Assembly (NCBI GenBank): GCA_024278345.1
Contig: JAJRTK010000021.1
Coordinates: forward strand, 1 to 13,872
Origin: a bacterium
GTDB lineage: Bacteria > CSSED10-310 > JAJRTK01
Reading direction: 5' to 3'
DNA: 13,872 bases
The notes beneath the pieces were generated by a model. That model had not been told where the DNA came from. It did not search any database and saw only the letters and a list, made by a program, of their open reading frames with translations. The number at the start of each line of letters is the position of its first letter. Within the stretch, counting starts at the first letter, position 1. The position numbers were made by a program, and so were the translations under genes. This document shows positions 2 through 13,872 of this stretch, one piece after another.

Positions 2-22
2 AACCCAGAACCAGGAACCCAC
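2..22 (+). repeat. Three heptanucleotide repeats abutting a start codon
   Basis: Three consecutive 7-nt units (AACCCAG, AACCAGG, AACCCAC) run directly into the ATG at 23. The middle unit contains AGGA about seven bases before the ATG, so the repeat itself appears to supply the Shine-Dalgarno sequence. The same repeat family lies downstream of this gene (1589-1700) and just before its paralogue (12721-12748). Confidence 0.8.
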
Positions 23-1588
23 ATGCACCGCTTTTTCAATACCGCCGGACCCTGTGACCCGAAAAAACATTACATGCTCCCGCCGGAACGCCGGATCCCC
101 GGTGTCCACCGCCTCATCGATCAAGAACTCTACTTCGTCATCCACGCGCCACGGCAGGTGGGTAAGACCACCTGTTTCCGCACCCTCGCACAAACTCTCA
201 CCGCCGAGGGAAACTACGCCGCCCTCCACGCAAGTTGTGAAATGGCCCAGGCCATGGGAAAAAACATCGAGGGAGCCGTCCAGGCCATCGTCGAAGCCCT
301 CCTGAAAGAAGCGCGGCTCCAACTTCCCAACGAACTTCGACCCCCAAAAGTCCCCCACGTGAGTTCCGCCACCCGCTTGAACCTCTTCCTGGCACAGTGG
401 GCGGAAACCTGCCCTTTGCCCGTCGTCCTCTTCCTGGACGAAATCGACGCTCTTTTGGACGAAAGCCTCGTCTCCGTCCTCCGCCAGCTCCGGGACGGCT
501 ACATGAGCAGACCCGGCGCCTTCCCACAGTCCGTCGCCCTCATCGGACTCCGCGACGTCCGCGACTACAAGGTCTCCATCCGGCCCAAAACCGCCAGCCT
601 CGGCACCTCTTCACCCTTCAACATCAAGGTCGACTCCATCACCATCCGCAACTTCACACAAGACGAAGTCGCCGAACTCTACCTCCAGCACACCGAAGAA
701 ACCGGCCAAACCTTCACCGATGAAGCCCTGGAAATGGCTTGGGACTTGACCCGCGGTCAGCCCTGGCTCGTCAACGCCCTGGCCCGCCTGGTCGTGGAAA
801 AGGATGTCGCCGACCGCCACACACCCATCACCGCCGCTCACATCGAGGCCGCCAAGGAAGCCATCATCCAGCGCCGCGACACACACCTCGACTCCCTCGT
901 CCACAAGCTCCGCGAGCCACGCGTCCGCCGCATTATCGAACCCATCCTCGCTGGCGAGCTACTCCTGGGGGAACGCCTCGACGACGACCTCGCATACGTC
1001 GAAGACTTGGGACTCATCCAACGACACGACGGCGGCTACGTGCATATCGCAAATCCCATCTACCAGGAAGTGCTTCCCCGCACCCTGGCCTATTCCATCC
1101 AAGGCAACATCCCAAATCCCACCGCATGGTATATCAAAGAGGACGGCTCCCTCGACATTGACGCTCTCCTCAGCGCATTCCTCTCCTTCTGGAAGCAGCA
1201 CGGCGAGCCTCTCATGGCCGCGCAGCCCTACCACGAGATCGCTCCACACCTCGTCCTCATGGCCTTCCTACAGCGCATCGTCAACGGCGGCGGCACCATC
1301 GACCGCGAATACGCCGTCGCCTCCGGCAGGATGGACCTCTGCATCCGCTGGCCTCACCCAAGAAGACTCCAGCTCGAAGCCCTGGAGATCAAGGTCTGGA
1401 AACCCAAAAGACCCGACCCACTCCACGAAGGCCTCCGGCAGCTCACCCGCTACCTCCAAAGACTCGAACTGGACCACGGAGTCCTCGCACTCTTCGACCG
1501 AAGACCCCAGGCCCCACCCATCGAGGAGCGCTCCAAGATGCAACCGCTGACCCACGACGGTAGGCAAATCATCCTGCTACGCCTCTAA
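23..1588 (+). CDS. AAA-like P-loop ATPase with C-terminal PD-(D/E)XK nuclease-like domain
   Basis: A 521-residue soluble protein. The N-terminus (FFNTAGPC, then HYMLPPERR) is the characteristic lead-in of a bacterial AAA-like family resembling AAA_35. A Walker A motif APRQVGKTT lies at residues 42-50 and Walker B VVLFLDEID at 134-142 (D139, E140). Residues of about 300-350 look like a winged-helix segment following the ATPase. The C-terminal part carries the spaced signature of a PD-(D/E)XK nuclease fold: D438, E455-I-K457, then Q473 in a helix with QLTRYL. It is probably an ATP-dependent nuclease or regulator, but its substrate is unknown. A close paralogue begins at 12752, so the two copies bracket the CRISPR-Cas operon as direct repeats. 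The ATG at 23 is chosen because it follows the repeat-borne AGGA and matches the paralogue's start. Whether it takes part in CRISPR immunity is not shown by the sequence. Confidence 0.85.
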   Translation: MHRFFNTAGPCDPKKHYMLPPERRIPGVHRLIDQELYFVIHAPRQVGKTTCFRTLAQTLTAEGNYAALHASCEMAQAMGKNIEGAVQAIVEALLKEARLQLPNELRPPKVPHVSSATRLNLFLAQWAETCPLPVVLFLDEIDALLDESLVSVLRQLRDGYMSRPGAFPQSVALIGLRDVRDYKVSIRPKTASLGTSSPFNIKVDSITIRNFTQDEVAELYLQHTEETGQTFTDEALEMAWDLTRGQPWLVNALARLVVEKDVADRHTPITAAHIEAAKEAIIQRRDTHLDSLVHKLREPRVRRIIEPILAGELLLGERLDDDLAYVEDLGLIQRHDGGYVHIANPIYQEVLPRTLAYSIQGNIPNPTAWYIKEDGSLDIDALLSAFLSFWKQHGEPLMAAQPYHEIAPHLVLMAFLQRIVNGGGTIDREYAVASGRMDLCIRWPHPRRLQLEALEIKVWKPKRPDPLHEGLRQLTRYLQRLELDHGVLALFDRRPQAPPIEERSKMQPLTHDGRQIILLRL

Positions 1589-2229: not shown

Positions 2230-3915
2230 ATGACGAAGATCCTTGTCGTCCTGGATATTCCGGGGATCAAGAACTATGTCTTCAGCTCCAACGTGTTGCG
2301 CGAGATCCAAGGCGCCAGCGCTTTGATCGATCATTTCAGCAGGTGGGAGACGGAGCCCCTACTGCGAGACTGGTTCGCGCAACATTGTTGTGGGAATTCC
2401 GTCAGTGAAGGCTCGGCGGCGGTGGAGGTGGAAAAGATCTTCGCCAACGCCGGCGGCGGTCAGTTCCTGGTCCGGAACTCGCCTGGCGAAGCCGAGGTGC
2501 GCGGGGCGCTTCTTCACGTGGCGCGCGAACTCCGGCACCGGTCCCAGGGCGGTCTGTTTCTGAACTTCGGGATGGCGCGGGTCTCGGATGAAGAGGACGG
2601 CTACCGCAAAGCCTTGGACCAGGCCCACCTCCGCATGCGGCGGCGCAGGAAGTCGGCGCCGAGAACCGGGGTTGCGGCCACCTGGCCCCTCGCGCGGGAA
2701 TGCGACAGCCTGGCCTGCGAACCGGCCAGTCTCCTGGTGGATATGGAGGGCGTAACCGTGGGCGAGGGAGCCCAGCTTTCCGAAAGCGATCCGGAGACTC
2801 GATGGCTCTCCATGGTGGCTTACGGGAAGTTGGAAGCCGCCCGTTGGGCGCGGGGCCGCGACGAGAAGAACCTCTGGGCCGAATTCAGGAGAGAGACGGG
2901 GAAGACTCCCGCGTACAGCCTGGAAAGCCTGGGCAAGAGTGCCCGGCGCACCGGGTATGTGGGCATCCTTTATGCCGACGGCAACAGCATGGGCAAGGTC
3001 GTGCGGAGTATCCCCGATCCGGCGAGCTACCGCGCTTTCTCCGACATCGTGGACAACGCTATCCGAAAGAGCGCCTACACTTTGATCAAGGATCTGACCC
3101 TCAAGGCCTTCCCCCTGCTCCTGGGAGGTGACGACCTGGTCATGATCGTGGCGGCGGATCGGGCCTTGGAATTTGCCGCGCGACTGCCCGGCGAGTTCCA
3201 GCGCCGCTCCAAGGACGGGATCGCCGCCTCCGGAACAGACTGGCTCAGGAAGCGTTGCCCCGACGGGTTTTCCCTCTCCATCGGCGTCGCTTTCGGTCGG
3301 GCCAGCCACCCGTTCCACCTTTTGCTCCACCAGGCAGAACAGCTCTTGAAAAGCGCCAAACGCGACGCGCTGTCGGAAGCGGAGCCCACGAAGAAGGCCA
3401 GGATCGATTTCCACCTGACCCAGAGTTCCTCCACCCGGGAACTCCAGGCTTTGCGGCGGCAGGAATGGAGGTTCACCGAAACGATTCCCACTCCGGGAGG
3501 AAGCCGGGTCATATCCTGCTCCCGGACCTTTCGGCCCTACTCCCCGGAGAGCCTCCGGGCACTATTGGACTGCACCCAGAGACTCCGGGAGGAGAAACTG
3601 CCGCGGAACAAGGCCAGCGCCATGGCCGAGGCCGCGTGGAGCGATTCCCTCCTGCAAGCCGAGATCCTGGCCCTGGAGAACATCGGGCGTCTGAAACCCA
3701 AACACAGAAAGATCCTCGTCGACCTGGAGAAAAAACTCCGATGCTCGGAAACCCCACCCTTCCATGTCATCCCGGATTCCCAGGAACGCCGGGCGTTCGC
3801 CATCGATCTCCAGGAGTGCCTCTCCCTGCAGAGTACGGCCGTGGAGGAAGACGAGGATGCCACGACCGACAAAACACCGGTCGCGGCAGAACACGGTCGT
3901 GAAGGAGGGGGATGA
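2230..3915 (+). CDS. cas10: Cas10, type III CRISPR large subunit (HD-less, GGDD cyclase intact)
   Basis: Large subunit of a type III effector complex, expected to make cyclic oligoadenylates when the complex binds target RNA. The 561-residue protein starts directly with the first palm domain (VLDIPGIKNYVFSSNVLREI near residues 7-26, with FANAGGGQF further on). There is no N-terminal HD nuclease domain, a usual trait of subtype III-D Cas10. The second palm has YADGNSMGK at 248-256, GGDD at 299-302 and a later SIGVAF segment followed by a helix with AEQLLKSAK. The treble-clef zinc site normally seen between the palms appears reduced to CDSLAC. The ATG at 2230 is preferred because AGGTG lies eight bases before it; 2224 is an in-frame alternative. 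The frame stays open upstream to 1765, but that part has no family resemblance. First gene of the operon. Its GC-rich tail ends in EHGREGGG, which encodes a Shine-Dalgarno-like run. Confidence 0.93.
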   Translation: MTKILVVLDIPGIKNYVFSSNVLREIQGASALIDHFSRWETEPLLRDWFAQHCCGNSVSEGSAAVEVEKIFANAGGGQFLVRNSPGEAEVRGALLHVARELRHRSQGGLFLNFGMARVSDEEDGYRKALDQAHLRMRRRRKSAPRTGVAATWPLARECDSLACEPASLLVDMEGVTVGEGAQLSESDPETRWLSMVAYGKLEAARWARGRDEKNLWAEFRRETGKTPAYSLESLGKSARRTGYVGILYADGNSMGKVVRSIPDPASYRAFSDIVDNAIRKSAYTLIKDLTLKAFPLLLGGDDLVMIVAADRALEFAARLPGEFQRRSKDGIAASGTDWLRKRCPDGFSLSIGVAFGRASHPFHLLLHQAEQLLKSAKRDALSEAEPTKKARIDFHLTQSSSTRELQALRRQEWRFTETIPTPGGSRVISCSRTFRPYSPESLRALLDCTQRLREEKLPRNKASAMAEAAWSDSLLQAEILALENIGRLKPKHRKILVDLEKKLRCSETPPFHVIPDSQERRAFAIDLQECLSLQSTAVEEDEDATTDKTPVAAEHGREGGG

Positions 3916-4064
3916 TCCAACGACGGGATGACACACCAATCTCCGGGCCTCCGGCGCCGAGCCTCGAAAACCACTCCGCGAAGCGCGACCGGTCTCCTTC
4001 ACAAGAACTCACCATGGGAAACGAGCCATGCCTGACCTCGAACTTTCCTATCGACTGCAACTGA
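3912..4064 (+). CDS. Possible 50-residue ORF overlapping the cas10 stop
   Basis: An ATG at 3912 overlaps the cas10 stop as ATGA and lies three bases after a strong AAGGAGG. The frame encodes 50 residues rich in polar residues and proline, then ends at 4062-4064, 36 bases inside the following RAMP gene in another frame. It has no recognised domain. It may only couple translation between the two genes, and the spacing from the ribosome-binding site is short, so confidence is low. Confidence 0.2.
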   Translation: MIQRRDDTPISGPPAPSLENHSAKRDRSPSQELTMGNEPCLTSNFPIDCN

Positions 4065-4999
4065 TGGGCCGATGGCACTTCGGAAGCGGCCTGGAACGCG
4101 GCACCCTGGACCGGGCGATCCTTCGGGATGGCCGAGGCGTGCCGTACATTCCTGGTTCTCACCTCAAGGGCCGGCTCCGGGAGGCGGTCGAGTGGATCTG
4201 CCGCATCCTGAAGCTTCCGGTCTTCGAGCCTCACTCGCTGGACGACGAGAGCGCCCGCAGGTTCGCCCTGCCCCAAGCCTCCGGCAACCCCGTGGAGCGC
4301 CTCTTCGGGGCCCGCGACCGGGAGGGCTCCCTGATCGTCGGCCACGCCCACCCAGACGGAACCCGCGCCCAAAAGCTTCTGGCGTCTCCAGACGCTCTCC
4401 TGCCTCTCCGGCGCGTATCCATGGACCGCGGCCTGGGCCGCGCCCGGGACCGGCGGCTCTTTTACACCGAATACGGCTACGGCTTGCCTTCTCAGCCTGC
4501 GGGTGCCGCCGTCACGGAGGACACCGCCACCGCGCCCTCCGTCACCTTCCGCGGCCGCATCCTGGCCCGCCACGTGCCACAACGCCTCCCCACCATCGGC
4601 GAGCCCCTCTTCTCCGGCTGGGAGCCCGGCTGGCCGCTGGATTGGTCCATCCTCGCGGCCTCTCTCCTGGCCCTCGAACGGGTGGGCGGCGACGTGAGCA
4701 CCGGCGCCGGTGCCTGCGAAATCGACCTCGAAAACACGCGATGGCGCCCCGAAAAAGGCCGGGAATGGAAGAGCCTGGACAATCCTCATCGACTCCTGAA
4801 GCCCCTGGAGTCCCTGGGTTGCTTCCCCCTCTTCCAGATGGCCGAACCGGGTTCCCACGGCGCCGAGTCCCGTCTCCCAAGCTTCCTCCAATTCGCCAAG
4901 GACGACCTAGGCTGCTCCCTGGAATCCATCGACCAACAAGCGGAATGGAGAGACGACTGGAGCATGGCCCTGGAATACTTTGATGAGACATCCGCATAG
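4028..4999 (+). CDS. Cas7-type RAMP protein (Csm3-like, type III-D)
   Basis: A 323-residue backbone subunit of the RNA-targeting complex. RAMP features: an N-terminal beta strand leading to GRWHFGSG, then D28 in GTLDRAIL, then YIPGSHLKGRLRE (P42-GSHLKG). D28 aligns with the aspartate that cleaves target RNA in Csm3, so this subunit may be catalytic. A glycine-rich RAMP loop GGDVSTGAG occurs at 220-228. The last 90 residues are a C-terminal extension not needed for the core fold. The start is weakly supported by GGGAAACGAG upstream of ATG 4028. It lies between cas10 and csx10, the order seen in many III-D loci. The gap to cas10 is 112 bases, and the next gene follows after 10 bases. Confidence 0.85.
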   Translation: MPDLELSYRLQLMGRWHFGSGLERGTLDRAILRDGRGVPYIPGSHLKGRLREAVEWICRILKLPVFEPHSLDDESARRFALPQASGNPVERLFGARDREGSLIVGHAHPDGTRAQKLLASPDALLPLRRVSMDRGLGRARDRRLFYTEYGYGLPSQPAGAAVTEDTATAPSVTFRGRILARHVPQRLPTIGEPLFSGWEPGWPLDWSILAASLLALERVGGDVSTGAGACEIDLENTRWRPEKGREWKSLDNPHRLLKPLESLGCFPLFQMAEPGSHGAESRLPSFLQFAKDDLGCSLESIDQQAEWRDDWSMALEYFDETSA

Positions 5000-5009
5000 G
5001 AGCCCAACC

Positions 5010-6368
5010 ATGACCCTGCAGCCCTTGGAACTGAAAGCGACACTCCTGGAACCGGTGGCCATCCGGGCCAACCGCCAGTCCACGCGCTCGGAAGGCCTGG
5101 CCTGGATTCCCGGCTCCACCCTCCTGGGTGCCCTGGCCCACGCCTACCTCCGCTGGGCCGGCGCCCCGGACGACGACGGATTCCAAATCCTGTTCCAGGA
5201 CGAGAACCACTGCCGCTGGGGCTCCCTCCGGACCGGGATCTACCAGCCACCGGCCACCGCCGCAAGCTGCAAGCGGTTCCCCGGCATCTCCGGCGCCACC
5301 ACCTCGAAAAGCGGCGCCACGCCACCCGCCGACTCCGAGGCCCACGGCATCCACGACCTGCTCCTGGCCGAGCTCCTGGCCCTCCGGAAACCGGAAGACG
5401 CCCCCACAGCGATTCTCTGCCGCTGCGGAGAACCCCTCAAGCCCTATCGATCCCCGCTCCTCACCACCTCTTCAAAAAAAGGCGGCCTCCAGTTCGCAGC
5501 ACCAGCACAACCCGTCCGACGAACACGCCTCCACGTGGGCATCCTCAGGACCACTTCCACCGCGGCCAAGCAGATCCTCTTCTCCGAGGAAACCCTCGAC
5601 TGCTGGATCAAAACCGGGGCCGAACCCGGCATCGACGCCTACGAACCCACCATCCTCTCCGGAACCATCGAACTCTCCGACCATGCCAGGAAGACCCTGA
5701 AAAGCCTCCTGGACCTCCTCGACTCCCGCGTCGATGTCGGCGCCTCCCGCTCCCGAGGCCTGGGATCCCTCGAACTGAAGATGGGCCAACCACTCCCAAC
5801 TCCCTCCACCACCCAACTCGACCGGTTCAGCAATCAGGCGGCACACCACCTGTCCGGAACCGATTCCATCTTCACCCTCACCTTTCCCGAGGGCGCCCTC
5901 TTCCTCGACCCCCTCCTACGCTTCACCAACGACCCCGCCGCCGCCATCCCCTGGCTGCCACCCATGCCCAGGGAAGACCAAAAGCCCGAGACCGTCGATG
6001 GCATCACGCCACTCTACGGAAACGCCGAGTTCACCCGCCTCCGAGGATGGCACGGAGCACATGGACTCCCAAGGTCCGACGACCTGGCCCTGGAACCAGG
6101 AGCCATCTTCGCCTACGAAGTCCACCAAGACCAATGGCCCAACGTCCAGGAGCGACTCCTCCAACTCGCCGCCACCGGCGCAGGCCTTCGACGCAACGAA
6201 GGATTGGGCCGCGTCCGGATCTCCGACCCGTTCCACCTCAAATTCGCCTACCAACCCACCGCCCAAACGCCTGGAAGCCACCCCCCCAACGCACCCACCA
6301 ACCACTTAAAAACAAAGCGTTCCACCAAAAATACCCGAAAAAAGAAGAAAAAGAAACGCAAGCGATGA
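5010..6368 (+). CDS. csx10: Csx10, two-domain Cas5-like RAMP of type III-D
   Basis: A 452-residue protein expected to cap the crRNA 5' end in the complex, as Cas5/Cmr3-type subunits do. Two RAMP domains are visible. The first has IPGSTLLGAL at 33-42 and a glycine-rich loop VGASRSRGLGS at 243-253. The second ends in a glycine-rich loop around GLRRNEGLGRV (391-401). A reduced cysteine motif CRCGEPLKPY starts at 137; many family members have a fuller zinc-binding pair here. Between them is the VRRTRLHVGILRTT-type strand typical of Csx10. The C-terminus is a very basic tail after residue 430 (KKKKKKRKR), which could bind nucleic acid or be a slippage product of the A-rich DNA at 6330-6365. ATG 5010 follows AGGAG at 4998-5002. 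An upstream in-frame TTG at 4980 would overlap the previous gene. Confidence 0.82.
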   Translation: MTLQPLELKATLLEPVAIRANRQSTRSEGLAWIPGSTLLGALAHAYLRWAGAPDDDGFQILFQDENHCRWGSLRTGIYQPPATAASCKRFPGISGATTSKSGATPPADSEAHGIHDLLLAELLALRKPEDAPTAILCRCGEPLKPYRSPLLTTSSKKGGLQFAAPAQPVRRTRLHVGILRTTSTAAKQILFSEETLDCWIKTGAEPGIDAYEPTILSGTIELSDHARKTLKSLLDLLDSRVDVGASRSRGLGSLELKMGQPLPTPSTTQLDRFSNQAAHHLSGTDSIFTLTFPEGALFLDPLLRFTNDPAAAIPWLPPMPREDQKPETVDGITPLYGNAEFTRLRGWHGAHGLPRSDDLALEPGAIFAYEVHQDQWPNVQERLLQLAATGAGLRRNEGLGRVRISDPFHLKFAYQPTAQTPGSHPPNAPTNHLKTKRSTKNTRKKKKKKRKR

Positions 6369-6414
6369 CGCCCAACCCTCCACCCCAATCCCACACGCCG
6401 AAGGAGCATCCCTC

Positions 6415-6867
6415 ATGTCCCTGACACGCGACAACAAGACCATCATCGAACAATGGCTCATCAGTCCCGAGGCGCCCGACGCAAAACGACTGGGCAGGGA
6501 AACCGCCAACGCACTGCATCGCAATGCCACTGATGGCGAAGACCAGAAGGCCACCCGGATCATGACCCAAATCCGAGGCATCCAGAACCTAGTCTACTCC
6601 ACCAACCGCTTCTCCGACATCGAGGAAAGCATCTGGAGCCGCATGGGCCGGGACACCAAGAAAACCAGCATCTGGTGGGAAAAAGTCGCCACCGGGGCGC
6701 GAGAACCCGAACTCGGCCATCGCGTCCTGACGGCCCTGACCAAAATCCGCGACTTCATCGAAAACGAAAACGAACTCAAAAAAAGAAAACTCGAAGCCCG
6801 CATCTACGCCGCAAGGCTCTGGATCCGCCGCTTCGTCGCCAGCTACCTCTTCCACCGCAACTCGTGA
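6415..6867 (+). CDS. Csm2/Cas11-like small subunit
   Basis: A 150-residue, mostly helical, charged protein. The segment RIMTQIRGIQNLVYS at residues 48-62 resembles the TxxQIRxxxN signature of Csm2. The C-terminal helix LEARIYAARLWIRRFVASY fits the end of that family, where a conserved aromatic/basic helix packs on the complex. In type III complexes the small subunit lines the crRNA-target duplex opposite the Cas7 backbone. ATG 6415 has a good AAGGAG at 6401-6406. It follows csx10 by 46 bases. Length and gene position match III-D small subunits. Sequence divergence is high in this family, so the call rests on one motif plus context. Confidence 0.65.
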   Translation: MSLTRDNKTIIEQWLISPEAPDAKRLGRETANALHRNATDGEDQKATRIMTQIRGIQNLVYSTNRFSDIEESIWSRMGRDTKKTSIWWEKVATGAREPELGHRVLTALTKIRDFIENENELKKRKLEARIYAARLWIRRFVASYLFHRNS

Positions 6868-6911
6868 CCCGGCACCAGTCCACGAGGTTTCCTCCCAACG
6901 GCTTCTGGCTT

Positions 6912-6962
6912 CCAGGTGGAGGTCCGCTCCCATCGGGCGCCATCCGGCGCACCGCTGCTCGC
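6912..6962 (-). repeat. 51-bp dispersed hairpin repeat, left inverted copy
   Basis: The reverse complement of this segment matches 7650-7700 with four mismatches in 51, and 32 bases match without a break. The core forms a GCGCC/GGCGC hairpin. Together the two copies bracket the unrecognised gene at 7034-7531 as inverted repeats. I see no transposase or target-site duplication, so this may be a REP-like family rather than an insertion sequence. Confidence 0.85.
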
Positions 6963-7033
6963 ACGGCCACACCCGCAGGCGACAACCCGGAACCGCAAAA
7001 GGAGACAACCCCAAAAAAGAACGGAGAACCGCC

Positions 7034-7531
7034 ATGCCAGCCCCAACCGCCACCAAAGAAACTGCAGACCTCTGGTTCATCGAAGAAAAAATCGTGCCCC
7101 TGGCCAAAAAACAGGCCAACCAGGTGGTCCAACATAATCTCCTTCCAAAGGACCACTATAGCCATATGCTCGAAACCGTGGCCCGCATCGGCCGCCAACA
7201 GCCGGAAAAGCTCGAAAAACTCGCCAAAAACCAAAAACAACGAGCAGAAAAACGAATGTCTAATACCAATAAAAGAGAAGGCAACAAGATCATATTTTGG
7301 GAGCTTGTCCTGGAAGCCGTCCAAAGTCGGACAGCCAGCAATCCCCAAAAAAACCCGGGGCTGTATGATCTGGCCAAGGAGCGGATCGGGGATCCTCCAT
7401 CCCCCAACCCGAGCAAGAGCGAAAAGAAGGAACACGGCAAGAAAATCACAGAACTCCTCCACAAGCTCATTCCCGTTTGGAGCCGGAGCTTCTGCATCCG
7501 GATCCGCTACAAGATGGAGGCGCAGCGATGA
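7034..7531 (+). CDS. Unrecognised basic 165-residue protein inside the cas operon
   Basis: No family recognised. The protein is lysine-, arginine- and glutamine-rich, probably alpha-helical, with no signal peptide, membrane segment or cysteine motif. Residues about 52-78 have heptad-like charged repeats (PEKLEKLAKNQKQRAEKR). A middle stretch rich in Pro, Ser and Lys (about 120-140) looks like a flexible linker before a last helix ending in IRIRYKM. ATG 7034 follows ACGGAG at 7021-7026. The central part, around 7255-7310, is visibly richer in A and T than its neighbours. It lies between the small subunit and the two csm3-like genes, so a structural role such as a second small-subunit-like component or an accessory RNA-binding factor is possible. 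The flanking inverted repeats instead raise the possibility of insertion. The function is unknown. Confidence 0.6.
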   Translation: MPAPTATKETADLWFIEEKIVPLAKKQANQVVQHNLLPKDHYSHMLETVARIGRQQPEKLEKLAKNQKQRAEKRMSNTNKREGNKIIFWELVLEAVQSRTASNPQKNPGLYDLAKERIGDPPSPNPSKSEKKEHGKKITELLHKLIPVWSRSFCIRIRYKMEAQR

Positions 7532-7571
7532 GAGCTGTTGCGGGAGCGTCTTTCGTGCAGGCTCGCCGCGC

Positions 7572-7654
7572 CCATGGGTGTCCCGGCGGTGGCCATGGGC
7601 GAGGTGGGGGGAGGGCGGTGCCATGGAGGGTGCCCGGCGGTGGCCATGGGCGAG
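7572..7654 (+). repeat. Direct repeat pair with CCATGG cores
   Basis: A 22-base identical segment (CCCGGCGGTGGCCATGGGCG followed by AG) occurs at 7582-7603 and 7633-7654, a 51-base offset. Each copy is preceded by a CCATGG about ten bases upstream. The second copy runs into the 51-bp hairpin repeat at 7650. The G-rich intervening sequence has no coding character. Confidence 0.8.
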
Positions 7655-7700
7655 CAGCGGTGCGCCGGATGGCGCCCGATGCGAGCGGAACGCAACCTGG
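7650..7700 (+). repeat. 51-bp dispersed hairpin repeat, right copy
   Basis: This copy is inverted relative to 6912-6962 (47 of 51 positions identical) and related to the degenerate copy at 2061-2097. The core GCGCC-GGAT-GGCGC at 7662-7675 forms a perfect 5-bp stem, followed by the conserved GAGCGGAACGCA. It occupies much of the 300-base gap between the 165-residue gene and the first csm3-like gene. Confidence 0.85.
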
Positions 7701-7808
7701 AGCACGTGGAACTGGATCGACGATGGGGAGCGGGTTCTTGGGGAAGAGCTTTGCTGGAAGGGGAGAGATGTCGAGATTGACCTTGAGCGAGGGCCGTGGG
7801 CGCTGTGA
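7680..7808 (+). pseudogene. Possible 3' remnant of a lost gene
   Basis: The frame ending at TGA 7806-7808 reads as a plausible protein C-terminus (WIDDGERVLGEEL, then DVEIDLERGPWAL). It stops 30 bases before the next gene, the spacing expected of an operon neighbour. Upstream it runs into the hairpin repeat, and no start or ribosome-binding site is visible. It could be the tail of a gene truncated when the repeats arrived. Chance open frame in GC-rich DNA is the alternative. Confidence 0.2.
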
Positions 7809-7838
7809 GGCGGGATCCGGCCAAGAAAGGAGATGACG

Positions 7839-8717
7839 ATGTGGGGACCGCACTACGAGTCGCTGCCGGTCCGCTGGCGCGTTGAGCTGGAGATCGAGTT
7901 TTTGACGGCCTGGCGCGTCGGATCGGGCGAGGAAGGGGAGACGACGGACCTGGGGATTCTGCTGGACCCGGACGGGAGGCCGGTTCTTCCTGGATCCTCC
8001 ATCAAGGGGGTGTTCCGGAGCTGCTGCGAGCGGTTGGCGGGGAGCCTGGGGATGTCGGCTTGCCTGCTGGACCGTGGGCTGTCGGGGGTCGATTGTTGGA
8101 ATGGGTTCGCGCACGAGGAGTTCCGAAGTCACCGGGAGTCCGTATCCAAGGGGAAGCCGGGAGCGGTGGAGTTTCGGCGGCGCCTGGAGAGGAAAACCTG
8201 TCATGTGTGCCGTTTTTTCGGGACGACGATGATGGGAGGCCGGGTGGCGTTGTCCGACGGTCGGTTGGTGGCGGAGAGCTGGGCGGAGGTGGTGGAGCGT
8301 CGGGACGGCGTGGTCATCGACCGGGACGAGGGGACAGCCCGGGACGGCCTGAAATACGACTACGATGTGGCTCCTGCGGGGATGACGTTCGCTTCGAGCC
8401 TGGAGTGGATTGACTATCCGAATGCGAAGGATCCGGAGACTGCGGCGCAGACCCGGCGGGAGCGGGCGATGCTGGCGGCCGCGCTCTTCCAGTGGCTTGA
8501 CGGCTTCGCCCTGGGCGGCTTCACGAGCCGCGGCCTGGGCCGGGCGGAGCTGAGGGTGAAGAGCGTGGAGACGGTGGACCTGGGCAACGCGGAGCAGGTA
8601 CGGGAATTCCTGGTCCGGCGCCAATGGGAAAAGGTGGAGGACTGGGAAGAGCGATGGCAGGACTGGATCGAAACGCAGTTCGACGCGGCCCTGGCGGGGG
8701 CTTCCACCACGGCGTGA
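7839..8717 (+). CDS. csm3: Csm3-like Cas7 RAMP (first of pair)
   Basis: A 292-residue crRNA-binding backbone protein with likely target-RNA cleavage. The N-terminal RAMP signature is WRVGSGEE, then D37 in TTDLGILLD, then VLPGSSIKGVFRS (P51-GSSIKG). D37 matches the catalytic aspartate of Csm3. A CHVC pair (C121, C124) followed by RFFG marks the thumb/zinc region. VVIDRDEGTARDGLKYDY is the usual Cas7 segment contacting the crRNA-target kink. The glycine-rich loop GGFTSRGLGRAEL starts near 226. The AAGGAG at 7827-7832 touches the ATG at 7833 but is six bases from the ATG at 7839, so 7839 is chosen. The next gene is a second Csm3-like protein, 52 bases downstream. Confidence 0.88.
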   Translation: MWGPHYESLPVRWRVELEIEFLTAWRVGSGEEGETTDLGILLDPDGRPVLPGSSIKGVFRSCCERLAGSLGMSACLLDRGLSGVDCWNGFAHEEFRSHRESVSKGKPGAVEFRRRLERKTCHVCRFFGTTMMGGRVALSDGRLVAESWAEVVERRDGVVIDRDEGTARDGLKYDYDVAPAGMTFASSLEWIDYPNAKDPETAAQTRRERAMLAAALFQWLDGFALGGFTSRGLGRAELRVKSVETVDLGNAEQVREFLVRRQWEKVEDWEERWQDWIETQFDAALAGASTTA

Positions 8718-8769
8718 CGCCGTTGCGAAACAGGAAAAAACGCCACCTTGGTAAAAAAAGGAGAATCTC

Positions 8770-9732
8770 ATGTTCAAACAATGGTTCTGCCGCTGTGAAG
8801 CCCGTCTCCGGATCGAGCTGGAGGGGCCGCTGCTGGTGAAATCGGGCATCGCCAGCCTGGACGGGCCGGACGCGGGGCCGGTTCTCACGCTCCACGGCGG
8901 GGGCGACGCCATGCCGTTCATCCCCGGGTCCTCTCTCAAGGGCGTCGTGCGCTCGCACCTGGAGCGGATTGCCCGGGGATTGCGGCCAAACAGCGTCTGT
9001 ATTCCTTATTTGAAGGATTCGACGAAGAAGTTGCCCGATGGATCACAAGATTGCGTGGGCTGCGGTTTCCGGTTGCAGGGGCTGGACCTGAAGCCTGGCG
9101 AGGCCTACCGTTCGAGCTGCGCGGCTTGCCGCCTGTTCGGCTCGACGCGCCACAGGGGCAGGATGGGATTCGGCGACGCCTACTGGAGGACCGGGACGCT
9201 GAAACCGGCCATGGAAGTCCGGGATCACGTGGCCATCGACCGGTTCACCGGGGGCGGCGCTGGTGGCCTGAAGTTCGACGTGGAAGTCGTGGCCAGGGGA
9301 ACGTTCGAGACCCGGGTCGTTTTGGAAAACTTCGAGCTTTGGCAGCTCTCGGCCCTGGTCATCGCGCTGGTGGATTTCGAGGACGGCCTGCTTTCCATCG
9401 GCTCCGGTACGTCCCGCGGCCTGGGCCAGGTGCGCGGCGTCATCGAAGATCTCTGGATCGACCTGGTGAAGGCGAACAAGGAGCTAGTGGGCGTCGCCCA
9501 GTTGGCCCCTGAACAGAAGAAGCAGTATGGCTGGTCCGGGTGGGCGGCCAATCCGTCGATCCAGCTACCCGACAACCCGGAGCGCCGCGGCCTGCGTTAC
9601 CGCTACCGGCTGGACGCGGAGTGGCGCGAAGAGGCCTTTGGACAACTGGTTCCCGGATTCCGGAATTTCCTGGCCGAGCGGAATTGGCTCGACGATATCC
9701 AGACTCTTGTTCGCGAAAGGACGCGCTCATGA
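8770..9732 (+). CDS. csm3: Csm3-like Cas7 RAMP (second of pair)
   Basis: A 320-residue Cas7-type subunit. D34 in DGPDAGPVL aligns with the Csm3 cleavage residue, followed by MPFIPGSSLKGVVRS. Two CxxC pairs at C95/C98 and C117/C120 should form a zinc site, with the second leading into RLFGSTRHRG. HVAIDRFTGGGAGGLKFD is the characteristic crRNA-contact segment. A glycine-rich loop GSGTSRGLGQV starts near 211. Compared with the preceding paralogue it has a full zinc site and a longer C-terminal extension (about residues 235-320). Strong ribosome-binding site AAAGGAG sits six bases before ATG 8770. The stop codon overlaps the next start as ATGA (9729-9732), indicating translational coupling. Several distinct Cas7 proteins in one operon is normal for III-D. 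Confidence 0.9.
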   Translation: MFKQWFCRCEARLRIELEGPLLVKSGIASLDGPDAGPVLTLHGGGDAMPFIPGSSLKGVVRSHLERIARGLRPNSVCIPYLKDSTKKLPDGSQDCVGCGFRLQGLDLKPGEAYRSSCAACRLFGSTRHRGRMGFGDAYWRTGTLKPAMEVRDHVAIDRFTGGGAGGLKFDVEVVARGTFETRVVLENFELWQLSALVIALVDFEDGLLSIGSGTSRGLGQVRGVIEDLWIDLVKANKELVGVAQLAPEQKKQYGWSGWAANPSIQLPDNPERRGLRYRYRLDAEWREEAFGQLVPGFRNFLAERNWLDDIQTLVRERTRS

Positions 9733-10301
9733 CTCCCGGAACTCAATGGAGCCTGGCAGCGGGCGATCTGGAGTTCACCGTTCTGGCGCAATTCGCCGAA
9801 AGCATGGCTGCCGGGCTGGCGAAGGCCGACGGGAAGGCGCCCTTCCTCTGGACAGCGCACCCGGCCGCCTGGCGGCTGGAGCCGTGGGCTCCCGGGCTCC
9901 TGGAGGAGACGACCCTGGAAGGCCGGATCTTCGGGCCATCGGGGGAACTCCGGTGGCGCCGCCTGGAAGTGCGAAGGGGCGCCTGCATCCGGGTGGTCTA
10001 CCTGGGCCAGGTGGTCTTGCCTGGCGATGCGCCGTTGAAGGACCAATCCGCCAGGCTGGGCGAGCTGGAACGCCAGCCGGCCAGGCGAGCTGTCCTCTGG
10101 GGCAAGCTCCTTCCCGGTGCCCCGGATGGCCCGGTCTGGATCGAACAGAAGATCCCCCACCGCCTCCGGTATGGCTTCGTCGAGCCTGAGGCGGAGCGGA
10201 TCGCGTTGCTGCGGGAGGCCTGGGAGGCTCCCGACGGGACAGTCCAGTTCTGGCGTTTCGTCGACCTGGTTCCCTGGCGACCGCAAGAAAAGGAGGCCTG
10301 A
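9729..10301 (+). CDS. csx19: Csx19-like type III-D CRISPR-associated protein
   Basis: A 190-residue protein whose ATG overlaps the upstream stop by ATGA. Features recalled from the Csx19 (TIGR03984) family are a central AVLWGKL at about 121-127, EQKIPHRLRYGF starting at 139 and a terminal aromatic-rich QFWRFVDLVPW. The N-terminal half has an LEGRIFGPSGELRWRRLEV strand pair. Csx19 proteins occur with III-D gene sets, but their biochemical role is not established as far as I know. The position among RAMP genes, tight coupling and length all fit. The assignment comes from remembered family patterns rather than a profile search. A divergent small accessory protein of another family remains possible. 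Confidence 0.62.
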   Translation: MTPGTQWSLAAGDLEFTVLAQFAESMAAGLAKADGKAPFLWTAHPAAWRLEPWAPGLLEETTLEGRIFGPSGELRWRRLEVRRGACIRVVYLGQVVLPGDAPLKDQSARLGELERQPARRAVLWGKLLPGAPDGPVWIEQKIPHRLRYGFVEPEAERIALLREAWEAPDGTVQFWRFVDLVPWRPQEKEA

Positions 10302-10303
10302 TC

Positions 10304-11389
10304 ATGCCCGTGGGAGAAGAATTCTGGAACCCGTACCGCTTGATCCCCATGCCGAAGGGACAGCCTCCTCGAAAGGAGCCCCAATACCACCACCGGCCCC
10401 GGGGAAGTTCGGGAACCCTCTGGTGCCGCCTGGAGGCCAAGACCGCGCTCCTGGTGTCGAAGCAGGAAGGGACAGTCAACACCTTCTGGAAATCCAAGAG
10501 AACCAACAAACCGACGATACCCGGCACGTCCCTCATGGGGATGCTCCGGAGCGTCGTGGAGATCGTGGGCCACGGCTGTGCCATCACGTCGAGGAGTGAC
10601 GCTTGCCAGAGCATCGGCGGCCTCTGCGTCGCCTGCCGCATGTTCGGCTGGGTGGGCCAGGGCCAAAGGGATGCCCTCTACCGTGGCCACGTCAATATCG
10701 GCGACGGGGAGATGGATTCGACTCCCACGCCGGAGGCACGCTGGCAAAAGGCCGACGTCTACCTGTCCAGGCCCCGGCCGACTCACGCCTCCTTCTATCC
10801 CGGGCCGAAATCCGCCTACCGGAAGCTCTACCACCACCAGCCGCATTGCAAACAGGACCCGGCGCCTCCCCTTCGGGGAGTTAGGGCCAACACCAGCCTC
10901 AAGCCGGCTCCGGCGGGAACCATCTTCACCTTCCAGGTACGGTTCCGGGATCTGCCCGACAAGCTTCTAGGGCTGCTCCTCTACGCCCTGGTGTTGGAAG
11001 AGGAATGCCAGGCCACCCTCACCGGATGGGACGAAGAGATCGGACAGAAGCGCAAGTTCGAAATCAGGGGTCCCCTCTGTCACAAGCTGGGCCAGGGCAA
11101 GCCCTTGGGCCTGGGCTCCTGCAAGGTTGAAATCGAGAAGGCCCGCTTCTCCGCCGGCCTGAGCCGGTATGCCCCGGAAGGCCTGGCCAAGGCCAGGAAA
11201 ATATTGGAAGGCGATGAGTTGGACAACTGGATTCGGGGCAAAACCGAACCCTATCGAGGGCTGGAGACCAAGACGATGCAAGCGTTCCGGAAGATGACCA
11301 TCTTCGATGCTGACGACCCAAGGAAGTTCCGCTATCCATCGCTGAACTGGTTTAGCGCCAATCCAAATAGAAAGCTGAAGCCGCTTTGA
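10304..11389 (+). CDS. TIGR03986-like CRISPR-associated RAMP protein
   Basis: A 361-residue RAMP. It begins with NPYRLIPMP, similar to the PYxFxPL opening of the TIGR03986 family. It then has TIPGTSLMGMLRSVVEIV (P73-GTSLMG), a cysteine set C92, C101, C108, C111 around GGLCVACRMFG, and a late glycine-rich GKPLGLGSCKVEI starting near 265, a hallmark of that family. Where Csm3 has its catalytic aspartate this protein reads QEGTVNTFW, so it probably does not cleave target RNA. A terminal, Csm5-like position at the crRNA 3' end is a reasonable inference. ATG 10304 follows a strong AAAGGAGG and lies two bases after the csx19 stop. It is shorter than many TIGR03986 members. Confidence 0.78.
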   Translation: MPVGEEFWNPYRLIPMPKGQPPRKEPQYHHRPRGSSGTLWCRLEAKTALLVSKQEGTVNTFWKSKRTNKPTIPGTSLMGMLRSVVEIVGHGCAITSRSDACQSIGGLCVACRMFGWVGQGQRDALYRGHVNIGDGEMDSTPTPEARWQKADVYLSRPRPTHASFYPGPKSAYRKLYHHQPHCKQDPAPPLRGVRANTSLKPAPAGTIFTFQVRFRDLPDKLLGLLLYALVLEEECQATLTGWDEEIGQKRKFEIRGPLCHKLGQGKPLGLGSCKVEIEKARFSAGLSRYAPEGLAKARKILEGDELDNWIRGKTEPYRGLETKTMQAFRKMTIFDADDPRKFRYPSLNWFSANPNRKLKPL

Positions 11390-11429
11390 ACGGGAATCGG
11401 CAGGGGGAAGGAGAGCCTCATGGCCGGCA

Positions 11430-11705
11430 ATGCCAAAGGCAAGACACTTCATCGAACTCCTCTCAGCCAACCGGGACGACTGGCCCCCGGCACTCCAAAA
11501 GCAGGCCGACGCCATCACCTCCCTCGCCCGCGTCCACGCTGCCTGGGACCGACTCGACTACCGGCATGCCCAATCGCTCCTGGAGGAGGAAGGCGACCAG
11601 TTCGACTGGATACCCCAAGGCCGGTGGAGCCGAATGAAACCAAATAGGGAAGCCCGGCGATGGGTCAACGAACTCGCCGCCCAACCCCCTACGACAGCGG
11701 TGTGA
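11430..11705 (+). pseudogene. N-terminal fragment of split, CARF-less Cas02710-like effector
   Basis: A 91-residue frame that resembles the linker region between sensor and nuclease in Cas02710 (TIGR02710) proteins (LARVHAAWDRLDYRHAQSLLEEEGD). The roughly 150-residue N-terminal CARF sensor expected before it is absent, because the preceding RAMP gene ends only 40 bases upstream. The best ribosome-binding site (AAGGAG at 11408-11413) is spaced for an ATG at 11420 in a different, meaningless frame. The ATG at 11430 is in the protein-like frame but 16 bases from that site. The frame ends as VNELAAQPPTTAV-stop because of a 74-nt insertion. Its TGA overlaps the ATG of the downstream fragment (TGATG), so reinitiation is conceivable. 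Confidence 0.55.
11662..11700 (+). repeat. 39-bp direct repeat, copy A
   Basis: Identical over 39 bases to 11736-11774, with 35 bases between them. Both copies encode VNELAAQPPTTA, but they are 74 bases apart, so the duplication changes the reading frame and splits the effector gene. Recombination between the copies would delete exactly 74 bases and rejoin the two frames. Confidence 0.95.
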
Positions 11706-12322
11706 TGGAAGAGCTCGTCCCTGCGATCACGGCGCGGGTCAACGAACTCGCCGCCCAACCCCCTACGACAGCGGAATCTGGTGGGGTGGCCGCCAGGGCG
11801 GAACACCTGCGAAAACTCGGGGTCGCCCTCTTGGTCAACGGCCGACAACGACTCCGGGAGGCACACCTGGAGGATGCCCTCCCCCGGGCCTACCGCATCC
11901 TGGAACTCGTGGGGCAGATGCGCCTCTTCGAAAGGGGCTACGACGCTGCAAGGCTGCCGCCGGACGACGAACATGTGCAACGGGCCTTGAATCTCTTGGA
12001 ACAAAAGAAGAAGGAAAGCTTCTTTTGGGACGAAACCAACTCCTGCTACCTGGCACCGCGCATGCCCGCCACCTACCTCCTGACGTGCCTTGGCGGTCCC
12101 ATGGGGAAGCGTCTTAGCCAGGAAGCGGACAAGGGTGCTCTCCCGCCGCGCCTCAGGAACCGGAGCATCCTCATCCACGGGTTCCAGGCTTCCGCCACCT
12201 CGAGGACCGACGCCGAAAAGCTCTTCCACGGAATGGGCGATCTCTTGGCCGAGGCATTGGGCGATGATTGGACCCGCCTGGAACCCATCGCTCAATCCCT
12301 GGAAGATCCCGGCGCTGTCTAA
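11705..12322 (+). CDS. HEPN ribonuclease domain of Cas02710-like CRISPR effector
   Basis: A 205-residue frame holding a HEPN-type nuclease domain similar to the C-terminal part of Cas02710/Csm6-like effectors. LEDALPRAYRILELVGQMRL (about residues 57-76) corresponds to the conserved YDDAxARxYRxxExxxQ helix. RNRSILIHGF at 151-160 is the RN-x-SIL-x-HG hallmark containing the R-x4-H ribonuclease motif (R153, H158). In intact relatives an N-terminal CARF domain binds cyclic oligoadenylate and activates the HEPN RNase. Here no CARF is present. The start at 11705 overlaps the stop of the upstream fragment as TGATG; 11660 is an in-frame alternative. Removing the 74-nt insertion would give a continuous 272-residue protein. 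The catalytic motif is intact, so the domain may still be active if translated. Confidence 0.68.
   Translation: MEELVPAITARVNELAAQPPTTAESGGVAARAEHLRKLGVALLVNGRQRLREAHLEDALPRAYRILELVGQMRLFERGYDAARLPPDDEHVQRALNLLEQKKKESFFWDETNSCYLAPRMPATYLLTCLGGPMGKRLSQEADKGALPPRLRNRSILIHGFQASATSRTDAEKLFHGMGDLLAEALGDDWTRLEPIAQSLEDPGAV
11736..11774 (+). repeat. 39-bp direct repeat, copy B
   Basis: Perfect second copy of 11662-11700. It reads into the remainder of the effector gene in the downstream frame (VNELAAQPPTTAESGG). The bases beyond each copy differ on both sides, so this is not a simple 74-bp tandem duplication. Confidence 0.95.
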
Positions 12323-12720: not shown

Positions 12721-12748
12721 AGCCCAAAACCCAGAACCCGGAACCCCC
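12721..12748 (+). repeat. Degenerate heptanucleotide repeats before second ATPase copy
   Basis: Four 7-nt units (AGCCCAA, AACCCAG, AACCCGG, AACCCCC) end three bases before the ATG at 12752. They belong to the family seen at 2-22 and 1589-1700 but are more diverged, and the AGGA ribosome-binding element is reduced to CGGAA. Confidence 0.75.
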
Positions 12749-12751
12749 AAA

Positions 12752-13872
12752 ATGCCCCGCTTTTTCAACACCGCTGGACCCTGCAATCCGCAGGATCACT
12801 ACATGCTCCCACCGGAACGCCGGATCCCCGGCGTCCGGCAACTCATCGACCAGAAGCTCTACTTTGTCATCCACGCTCCCAGGCAGGTGGGCAAGACCAC
12901 CTGTTTCCGCACCCTGGCACGCACTCTCACCGCCGAAGGAAACTACGCCGCCCTCCACGCAAGTTGCGAAATGGCCCAGGCCATGGGGCAAAATATCGAG
13001 GGAGCCATCCAGGCCGTTGTGGAGGCGCTTCTCGAAGAAGCGCGACTGCAGTTCCCCACCGAACTGCGACCCAAGAAGATCCCCGACGTGAGTTCCGCCA
13101 CCCGTCTCAACCTCTTCCTGGCGCAATGGGCGGAGAGTTGCCCCAGGCCCGTCGTCCTCTTCCTGGACGAAATTGATGCTCTCCTGGACCAGAGCCTCGT
13201 CTCCGTCCTCCGCCAGCTCCGGGACGGCTACATGCGCAGACCCGGTGCCTTCCCACAGTCCGTCGCCCTCATCGGACTCCGCGACGTCCGCGACTACAAG
13301 GTCAGCATCCGGCCAAAAACCGCCAGCCTCGGCACCTCCTCTCCCTTCAACATCAAAGTCGATTCCATCACCATCCGCAACTTCACCCAAGGCGAAGTCG
13401 CCGAGCTCTACCTCCAGCACACCGAAGAAACCGGCCAAACCTTCACCGAACAGGCCCTGGAAACCGCCTGGCAACTCACCCGGGGCCAGCCATGGCTCGT
13501 CAACGCCCTGGCCCGCCAAACCGTGGAAAAAGATGTCACCGACCGCAACAACCCCATCACCGCCTCGCACCTGCAAGCCGCCAAGGAAGCCATTATCCAG
13601 CGCCGCGACACACACCTCGACTCCCTCGTCGATAAACTCCGCGAGCCACGCGTCCGACGCATTATCGAACCCATCCTCGCCGGCGAGCTACTCCTGGGGG
13701 AACGCCTAGACGACGACCTCGCATACGTCGAGGATCTCGGGCTCATCGCCGCTGATCCTCGCGGAGAGGCTCGCATCGCCAATCCCATCTACCGGGAAGT
13801 CATCCCCAGGGCCCTGGCATACGGCGCCCAGAGAACCATCCCCCACCAACCAGCCTGGTACATCAAAAAAGA
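12752..13872 (+). CDS. AAA-like ATPase/PD-(D/E)XK family protein, second copy (truncated by window end)
   Basis: The frame runs open from ATG 12752 to the window end, giving at least 373 residues of a close paralogue of the protein at 23-1588. The lead-in FFNTAGPC and HYMLPPERR, Walker A APRQVGKTT (42-50) and Walker B VVLFLDEID occupy the same residue positions. Identity is very high through about residue 330, also at DNA level. It then drops around residues 343-370 (GLIAADPRGEARIANPIYRE against GLIQRHDGGYVHIANPIYQE). The C-terminal nuclease-like domain lies outside the window, so its catalytic residues cannot be checked. The start is set by alignment with the first copy. A terminator lies upstream, so it is probably transcribed separately from the cas genes. 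Confidence 0.88.
   Translation, partial: MPRFFNTAGPCNPQDHYMLPPERRIPGVRQLIDQKLYFVIHAPRQVGKTTCFRTLARTLTAEGNYAALHASCEMAQAMGQNIEGAIQAVVEALLEEARLQFPTELRPKKIPDVSSATRLNLFLAQWAESCPRPVVLFLDEIDALLDQSLVSVLRQLRDGYMRRPGAFPQSVALIGLRDVRDYKVSIRPKTASLGTSSPFNIKVDSITIRNFTQGEVAELYLQHTEETGQTFTEQALETAWQLTRGQPWLVNALARQTVEKDVTDRNNPITASHLQAAKEAIIQRRDTHLDSLVDKLREPRVRRIIEPILAGELLLGERLDDDLAYVEDLGLIAADPRGEARIANPIYREVIPRALAYGAQRTIPHQPAWYIKK

What the first reader, a model, noticed from the sequence alone, without database searches (positions are those of the whole stretch)
11430..12322. HEPN effector gene split by a 74-nt insertion that could revert precisely
Two 39-bp identical direct repeats (11662-11700 and 11736-11774) lie 74 bases apart inside the Cas02710-like effector gene. 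Both encode the same residues but in different frames. Deleting one repeat plus the 35-base spacer restores a continuous 272-codon frame. RecA-dependent or slippage deletion could therefore switch the RNase back on, making this a candidate on/off switch for a toxic immune effector. The stop and restart overlap (TGATG) also allows low-level production of the HEPN domain alone. Simple pseudogene decay is the conservative reading.
Basis: partly seen in the sequence, partly recalled or inferred. Interest (0 to 1): 0.72.

Follow-up and report, generated by a model that had tools for sequence, protein, structure and literature searches.

The report
Misplaced CRISPR spacer in immune gene
A broken CRISPR-associated RNase gene carries a 74-base insert shaped like a CRISPR repeat-spacer-repeat, most simply explained as the cell's own spacer-inserting machinery hitting the wrong place; because the gene has also lost its sensor half, it is a dead gene rather than an on/off switch.

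Summary
The two 39-bp repeats are real and exact. A 90%-identical intact paralogue in the same genome has a single copy, so the window carries a 74-nt insertion: a 39-bp target duplication plus 35 foreign nucleotides. The paralogue also shows that the window gene lost 515 nt, its whole CARF sensor domain, and that its ribosome-binding site and start codon are out of frame. Excising the 74 nt would therefore not restore a sensor-controlled effector, so the proposed switch is not supported.

The insertion has CRISPR geometry. The genome's own arrays have 37-nt repeats with spacers of 33-41 nt (one has period exactly 74), and Cas1 is encoded at four loci. In 1.57 Mb of this genome, 7 of 13 isolated direct-repeat pairs of 30 nt or more have 35-39-bp arms and 33-37-nt spacers. 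Two sites resemble native repeats: the window (20/37, p=0.004) and a unit in a PFOR gene (21/37, p=0.0005), whose spacer matches another chromosomal gene.

An independent cyanobacterium carries a 73-nt insertion of the same kind in its own CARF-HEPN gene; two relatives lack exactly 73 nt.

Best explanation: natural off-target spacer integration by Cas1-Cas2 into an immune effector gene.

The parts
11408..11422 (+). ribosome-binding site (AAGGAG 11408-11413) and natural start codon ATG 11420, conserved in the paralogue; out of frame with the body of the gene since the CARF deletion
   Evidence: BLASTN to paralogue L002; sequence
11420..11647 (+). frame opened by the natural start: 75 aa, then TAG (the paralogue's DNA reads TAT here)
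   Evidence: ORF list, alignment
11448..11452 (+). deletion junction: 515 nt net missing relative to the paralogue = the CARF domain
   Evidence: junction printed
11430..11705 (+). ORF A: linker (6H) part, from an internal ATG to TGA 11703-11705
   Evidence: Csm6_6H weak match E=0.003
11662..11700 (+). direct repeat copy 1 (39 bp). If read as a 37-nt CRISPR-like repeat, best register is 11662-11698 on the minus strand (20/37 to the genome's own I-C repeat)
11701..11735 (+). 35-nt foreign 'spacer' (37 nt, 11699-11735, in the best register); found nowhere else in the genome with up to 3 mismatches
11736..11774 (+). direct repeat copy 2 (39 bp), identical to copy 1; both differ from the single copy of the paralogue at 2 places
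11703..11707 (+). TGATG stop/restart overlap, lying inside the inserted spacer
11660..12322 (+). ORF B: HEPN domain (residues 56-179 match PF09670), R-x4-H motif RSILIH at 12161-12178 kept
2230..3915 (+). Cas10 with GGDD (3124-3135), the presumed maker of cyclic oligoadenylate signals
   Evidence: sequence
4028..11389 (+). rest of the type III-D-like effector operon: RAMP/Cas7-like genes, Csx10 (4980-6368), Csx19 (9729-10301), TIGR03986 RAMP (10304-11389)

Best explanation
The 74-nt segment is an off-target CRISPR adaptation event. A Cas1-Cas2 integrase of this genome joined a 35-37-nt prespacer to the two ends of a roughly 37-bp stretch inside the CARF-HEPN effector gene, and gap filling duplicated that stretch, exactly as a repeat is duplicated in a real array. 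The result is a one-spacer 'neo-CRISPR' unit that shifts the frame. Shown here: the insertion, its dimensions, their match to the genome's own arrays, the recurrence of such units elsewhere in the genome, and the resemblance of the site to the I-C repeat. Inferred: that Cas1-Cas2 did it, and which of the adaptation modules (I-C on contig C296 most likely). The gene was also destroyed by a separate 515-nt deletion of its CARF domain, so it is a recent pseudogene; loss of a toxic effector was probably tolerated or selected because intact paralogues exist (C234, C429).
For: Insertion proven against an intact paralogue and 11 orthologues. Native arrays: 37-nt repeat and period 74 on C280 next to cas1/cas2; 37-nt repeats with 38-41-nt spacers on C71; I-C array with 37-nt repeat and 33-34-nt spacers on C296. 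Cas1 at four loci, including I-C and I-E. Of 13 isolated, non-contig-end repeat pairs of 30 nt or more in 1.57 Mb of this genome, 7 have 35-39-bp arms and 33-37-nt spacers, with 37 as the modal arm length. Site resemblance, best over registers, strands and three native repeats: window 20/37, p=0.0044; PFOR unit (C291) 21/37, p=0.00045; C255 unit p=0.03. The spacer of the C291 unit matches 25/26 nt of another chromosomal gene, cut off by the contig end. Independent parallel: a Leptolyngbyaceae MAG with 36-37-nt native repeats has a 39-bp/34-nt unit in its own CARF-HEPN gene, and two relatives lack exactly 73 nt. Cas1-Cas2 use of repeat-like sites outside arrays is documented (PMC8047081; PMC11788318).
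Against: The source of the window's own spacer was not found. Most other units (C297, C405, C206, C254) do not resemble native repeats, and the Leptolyngbyaceae site does not either. The C254 pair is 35 bp, not 37. A 37-nt spacer is longer than the two I-C spacers seen (33, 34). Some repeat pairs with 36-37-bp arms have shorter spacers (15-29 nt), which CRISPR geometry does not predict. The genome is a fragmented MAG (550 contigs), reads are not available and assembly error cannot be excluded.
Confidence: 0.74

Rival explanations
1. Repair accident: a staggered or resected double-strand break was filled in (duplicating 39 bp) and 35 nt of filler DNA were ligated in by end joining or template switching. 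The gene is then ordinary pseudogene decay.
For: The gene carries another lesion, a 515-nt deletion. A captured piece of another gene, as in the C291 unit, also fits filler DNA.
Against: Repair should give variable duplication and filler lengths; here arm lengths cluster at 37 and spacers at 33-37 across the genome, matching the native arrays. Two sites resemble native repeats.
Confidence: 0.14
2. Reversible on/off switch: the repeat pair deletes and restores the effector in part of the population.
For: Perfect 39-bp repeats 35 nt apart can recombine; spacer loss by repeat recombination is known in arrays (general knowledge). Precise reversal is possible in principle.
Against: The window gene has no CARF domain and its start codon is out of frame, so reversal does not restore the effector. 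No variant without the insert was found or could be sought.
Confidence: 0.03
3. Assembly artefact or chimera between the near-identical paralogous loci of this MAG.
For: 550 contigs, paralogous CRISPR loci 90% alike, and contig ends in flanking repeat genes.
Against: The 35-nt piece occurs nowhere else in the assembly, and both copies carry two window-specific bases against the paralogue. A similar unit in an unrelated MAG has proper empty sites in relatives.
Confidence: 0.07

Closest known systems
Off-target (non-canonical) spacer integration / neo-CRISPR loci, Nivala, Shipman and Church 2018 (doi 10.1038/s41564-017-0097-z; cited in PMC9456107 and PMC11788318; original not held)
   Same: A prespacer-sized piece flanked by a duplication of CRISPR-repeat length at a chromosomal site, some sites resembling the repeat.
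   Different: Natural, several per genome in an uncultured bacterium, and lying inside the CRISPR system's own CARF-HEPN effector gene, in two unrelated bacteria. From memory, that paper already proposed a few natural cases (Yersinia pestis, Sulfolobus islandicus).
Csm6 / Cas02710 (TIGR02710, PF09670) CARF-HEPN ribonuclease
   Same: HEPN domain with R-x4-H and position at the end of a type III operon.
   Different: CARF domain deleted, natural start out of frame, 74-nt insertion: a pseudogene.
Phase-variable genes with recombining direct repeats
   Same: Direct repeats whose deletion would change the reading frame.
   Different: Repeats arose by target duplication around a foreign piece; no alternative state seen; reversal would not restore function.

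Membership tests
Cas1-Cas2 off-target integration (neo-CRISPR unit) | Target duplication of the length of the native repeat | tested here: met
   39 bp (37 plus 2 that can match by chance) against 37-nt native repeats
Cas1-Cas2 off-target integration (neo-CRISPR unit) | Insert of spacer length, absent from the empty site | tested here: met
   35-37 nt against 33-41 in native arrays; absent from paralogue and orthologues
Cas1-Cas2 off-target integration (neo-CRISPR unit) | Genome encodes adaptation proteins | tested here: met
   Cas1 at four loci; Cas2 and Cas4 beside I-C Cas1
Cas1-Cas2 off-target integration (neo-CRISPR unit) | Site resembles native repeat or leader-repeat junction | tested here: met
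   20/37 to the I-C repeat, p=0.0044; not met for several sister units
Cas1-Cas2 off-target integration (neo-CRISPR unit) | Spacer derives from captured DNA of known source | tested here: inconclusive
   No source for the window spacer; source-like match for the C291 unit
Csm6/Cas02710 effector | HEPN domain with R-x4-H | tested here: met
   PF09670 E=1.3e-13; RSILIH
Csm6/Cas02710 effector | N-terminal CARF domain and one open frame | tested here: not met
   515 nt deleted, frames split
Type III-D CRISPR-Cas locus | Cas10, Csx10, Csx19 and several Cas7-like RAMPs | tested here: met
   Csx10 E=1e-25, Csx19 E=3e-6, Cas10, TIGR03986, though below several curated cut-offs
Phase-variable switch | Both states observed in a population | not testable with these tools
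   no reads held

The most novel reading that the evidence does not exclude
The CRISPR integrase acts as a recurrent, inherently reversible mutator of its own system: stray spacer integration into CARF-HEPN effector genes shifts their frame and silences a toxic effector during self-targeting, and repeat recombination can later undo it. The window copy would be one that decayed further after silencing.
Probability: 0.08. Interest if true: 0.88.

Novelty: new member of a known kind. Interest (0 to 1): 0.62.

Why it matters
If right, stray spacer integration is not only a laboratory by-product but leaves several scars per genome in nature, recognisable by a duplication of the native repeat length around a spacer-sized piece. 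That makes integrase fidelity in the wild, the birth of new arrays, and the mutational cost of adaptive immunity measurable from genome sequences alone. Two independent hits in CARF-HEPN effectors raise the testable question whether losing a toxic type III effector is selected.

Tried and rejected
Search for the 35-nt piece in the own genome (up to 3 mismatches), in phage records and in viral contigs: nothing. Spacers of two sister units in viral contigs and one in the own genome: nothing. Same-phylum genomes are too distant for DNA empty-site comparison of the PFOR unit; the unit lies in a linker absent or different in the one alignable relative. Similarity between the window's and the cyanobacterial 39-mers (18/39, p=0.016) was considered and left as too weak. 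Short-spacer pairs (C14, C101, C8, C508) were not counted as CRISPR-like. An excess of units in effector genes could not be shown: one unit in roughly 0.09 Mb of effector sequence (my estimate) against none in the rest of 1.03 Mb of named control loci.

Full report
Observation. The window carries two identical 39-bp copies at 11662-11700 and 11736-11774, 74 nt apart start to start. ORF A (11430-11705) ends in a TGA that overlaps an ATG of ORF B (11660-12322) as TGATG; both frames read VNELAAQPPTTA across their copy. ORF B matches the Csm6 HEPN domain (PF09670, E=1.3e-13) and TIGR02710; ORF A weakly matches the Csm6 6H linker. Upstream lies a type III-D-like operon: Cas10 with GGDD, several RAMPs, Csx10, Csx19.

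What the gene used to be. The window is contig C326 of a 6.06-Mb MAG in 550 contigs. The same MAG holds a close paralogue on C234: 447 aa, CARF + linker + HEPN, one open frame. BLASTN shows two lesions in the window copy. First, 515 nt net are missing at about 11448-11452, which removes the CARF domain and puts the natural start (ATG 11420 behind AAGGAG) out of frame. Second, the paralogue has one copy of the 39-mer where the window has two plus 35 foreign nt. Both window copies share the two differences from the paralogue, so the duplication is younger than the split of the two genes. Eleven orthologues (38-46% identity, 439 aa or longer) have no insertion here. dN/dS against the paralogue is about 0.2-0.4: most divergence accumulated under selection, so the gene broke recently. 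A third own-genome copy (C429) is intact; a fourth (C377) is also frame-broken.

Why the switch idea fails. Precise loss of 74 nt would leave a gene without the sensor domain and with its natural start out of frame. Low-level HEPN-only product by TGATG restart is possible but untested. I did not build or fold the sequence without the insert.

What made the insertion. A 35-nt piece between 39-bp copies is a repeat-spacer-repeat. Native arrays of the genome: C280, 37-nt repeat, 37-nt spacers, period exactly 74, beside cas1 and cas2; C71 and C291, 37-nt repeat, spacers 38-41; C296, type I-C (Csd2, Cas4, Cas1c, Cas2), 37-nt repeat, spacers 33-34; C243 encodes type I-E Cas1e; C377 has a further Cas1.

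It is not alone. In 1.57 Mb of the genome I scanned for two-copy repeats with no third copy or other repeat nearby. Thirteen isolated pairs of 30 nt or more lie away from contig ends; seven have 35-39-bp arms and 33-37-nt spacers: the window, C291 (38/34, inside a pyruvate-ferredoxin oxidoreductase gene, in frame), C297 (37/35, after a stop codon), C255 (37/35, intergenic), C405 (37/33, one mismatch), C206 (37/36, four mismatches) and C254 (35/35). Decreasing identity suggests different ages. One unit on C252 is 29/32, period 61, the dimensions of type I-E. Two contigs (C291, C297) were first fetched because of a CRISPR pattern, so the sample is not fully random.

Site and source. The best ungapped identity to three native repeats over registers and strands is 20/37 for the window (I-C repeat, minus strand, p=0.0044 against random genomic 39-mers), 21/37 for C291 (C71 repeat, p=0.00045) and 17/37 for C255 (p=0.03); other units are at chance. 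The C291 spacer matches 25 of 26 nt at the end of contig C271, in a cyclase-like coding sequence: captured chromosomal DNA. No source was found for the window spacer.

Independent parallel. Scanning 1.03 Mb of named loci fetched as relatives of the effector gave one comparable non-array unit: 39/34, period 73, in a Leptolyngbyaceae MAG (L244), inside that organism's own CARF-HEPN gene and frame-shifting. Two relatives lack exactly 73 nt at that place. That genome has native repeats of 36 and 37 nt with periods near 71-76. Its site does not resemble them.

Conclusion. The geometry, recurrence, site resemblance and presence of several adaptation modules make off-target Cas1-Cas2 integration the best explanation (0.74). 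Use of repeat-like sites outside arrays is established for Cas1-Cas2 (PMC8047081; PMC11788318; Nivala et al. 2018 cited there and in PMC9456107), and the reaction's unusually short donor and long target are described in PMC8390005. Novelty lies in the natural recurrence and in the hit on the system's own effector. Repair filler, assembly error and reversible switching remain as rivals; reads and a census of arm length against native repeat length would decide.

Noticed in passing
L026 (C291) 4274-4383: In-frame 72-nt repeat-spacer-repeat unit inside a pyruvate-ferredoxin oxidoreductase gene; the arm GTCGAGGCTCCAGACCTTCCGATGACGAGATCGAAAC strongly resembles the native repeat.
   Followed up: yes
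L244 4510-4621 (CALIDI010000059.1): 73-nt unit of the same kind in the CARF-HEPN gene of a Leptolyngbyaceae MAG; two relatives have the empty site.
   Followed up: yes
L164 (C252) 10284-10373: Solitary 29-bp/32-nt unit, period 61, the dimensions of type I-E, in a genome that encodes Cas1e.
   Followed up: partly
L025 (C71) 7781-7805 and L012 (C296) 9254-9279: Two arrays of different type (III-associated and I-C) hold spacers overlapping by 25-26 nt: the same target was sampled by both systems.
   Followed up: no
window 18-1143 and 12747-13872: Two copies of an AAA-ATPase-like gene (MHRFFNTAGPCDP...) flank the type III locus at both contig ends and recur at C234; they may mediate recombination between paralogous CRISPR loci.
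   Followed up: no
L011 (C377) 14917-18146: Cas1 in a 650-aa open frame overlapping a primase-like (AEP-TOTE) ORF next to a type III-B operon.
   Followed up: no
L041 6465, L048 4096, L035 3336, L135 310: Isolated repeat pairs with 36-37-bp arms but spacers of only 15-29 nt; unexplained if arm length is set by the integrase.
   Followed up: no
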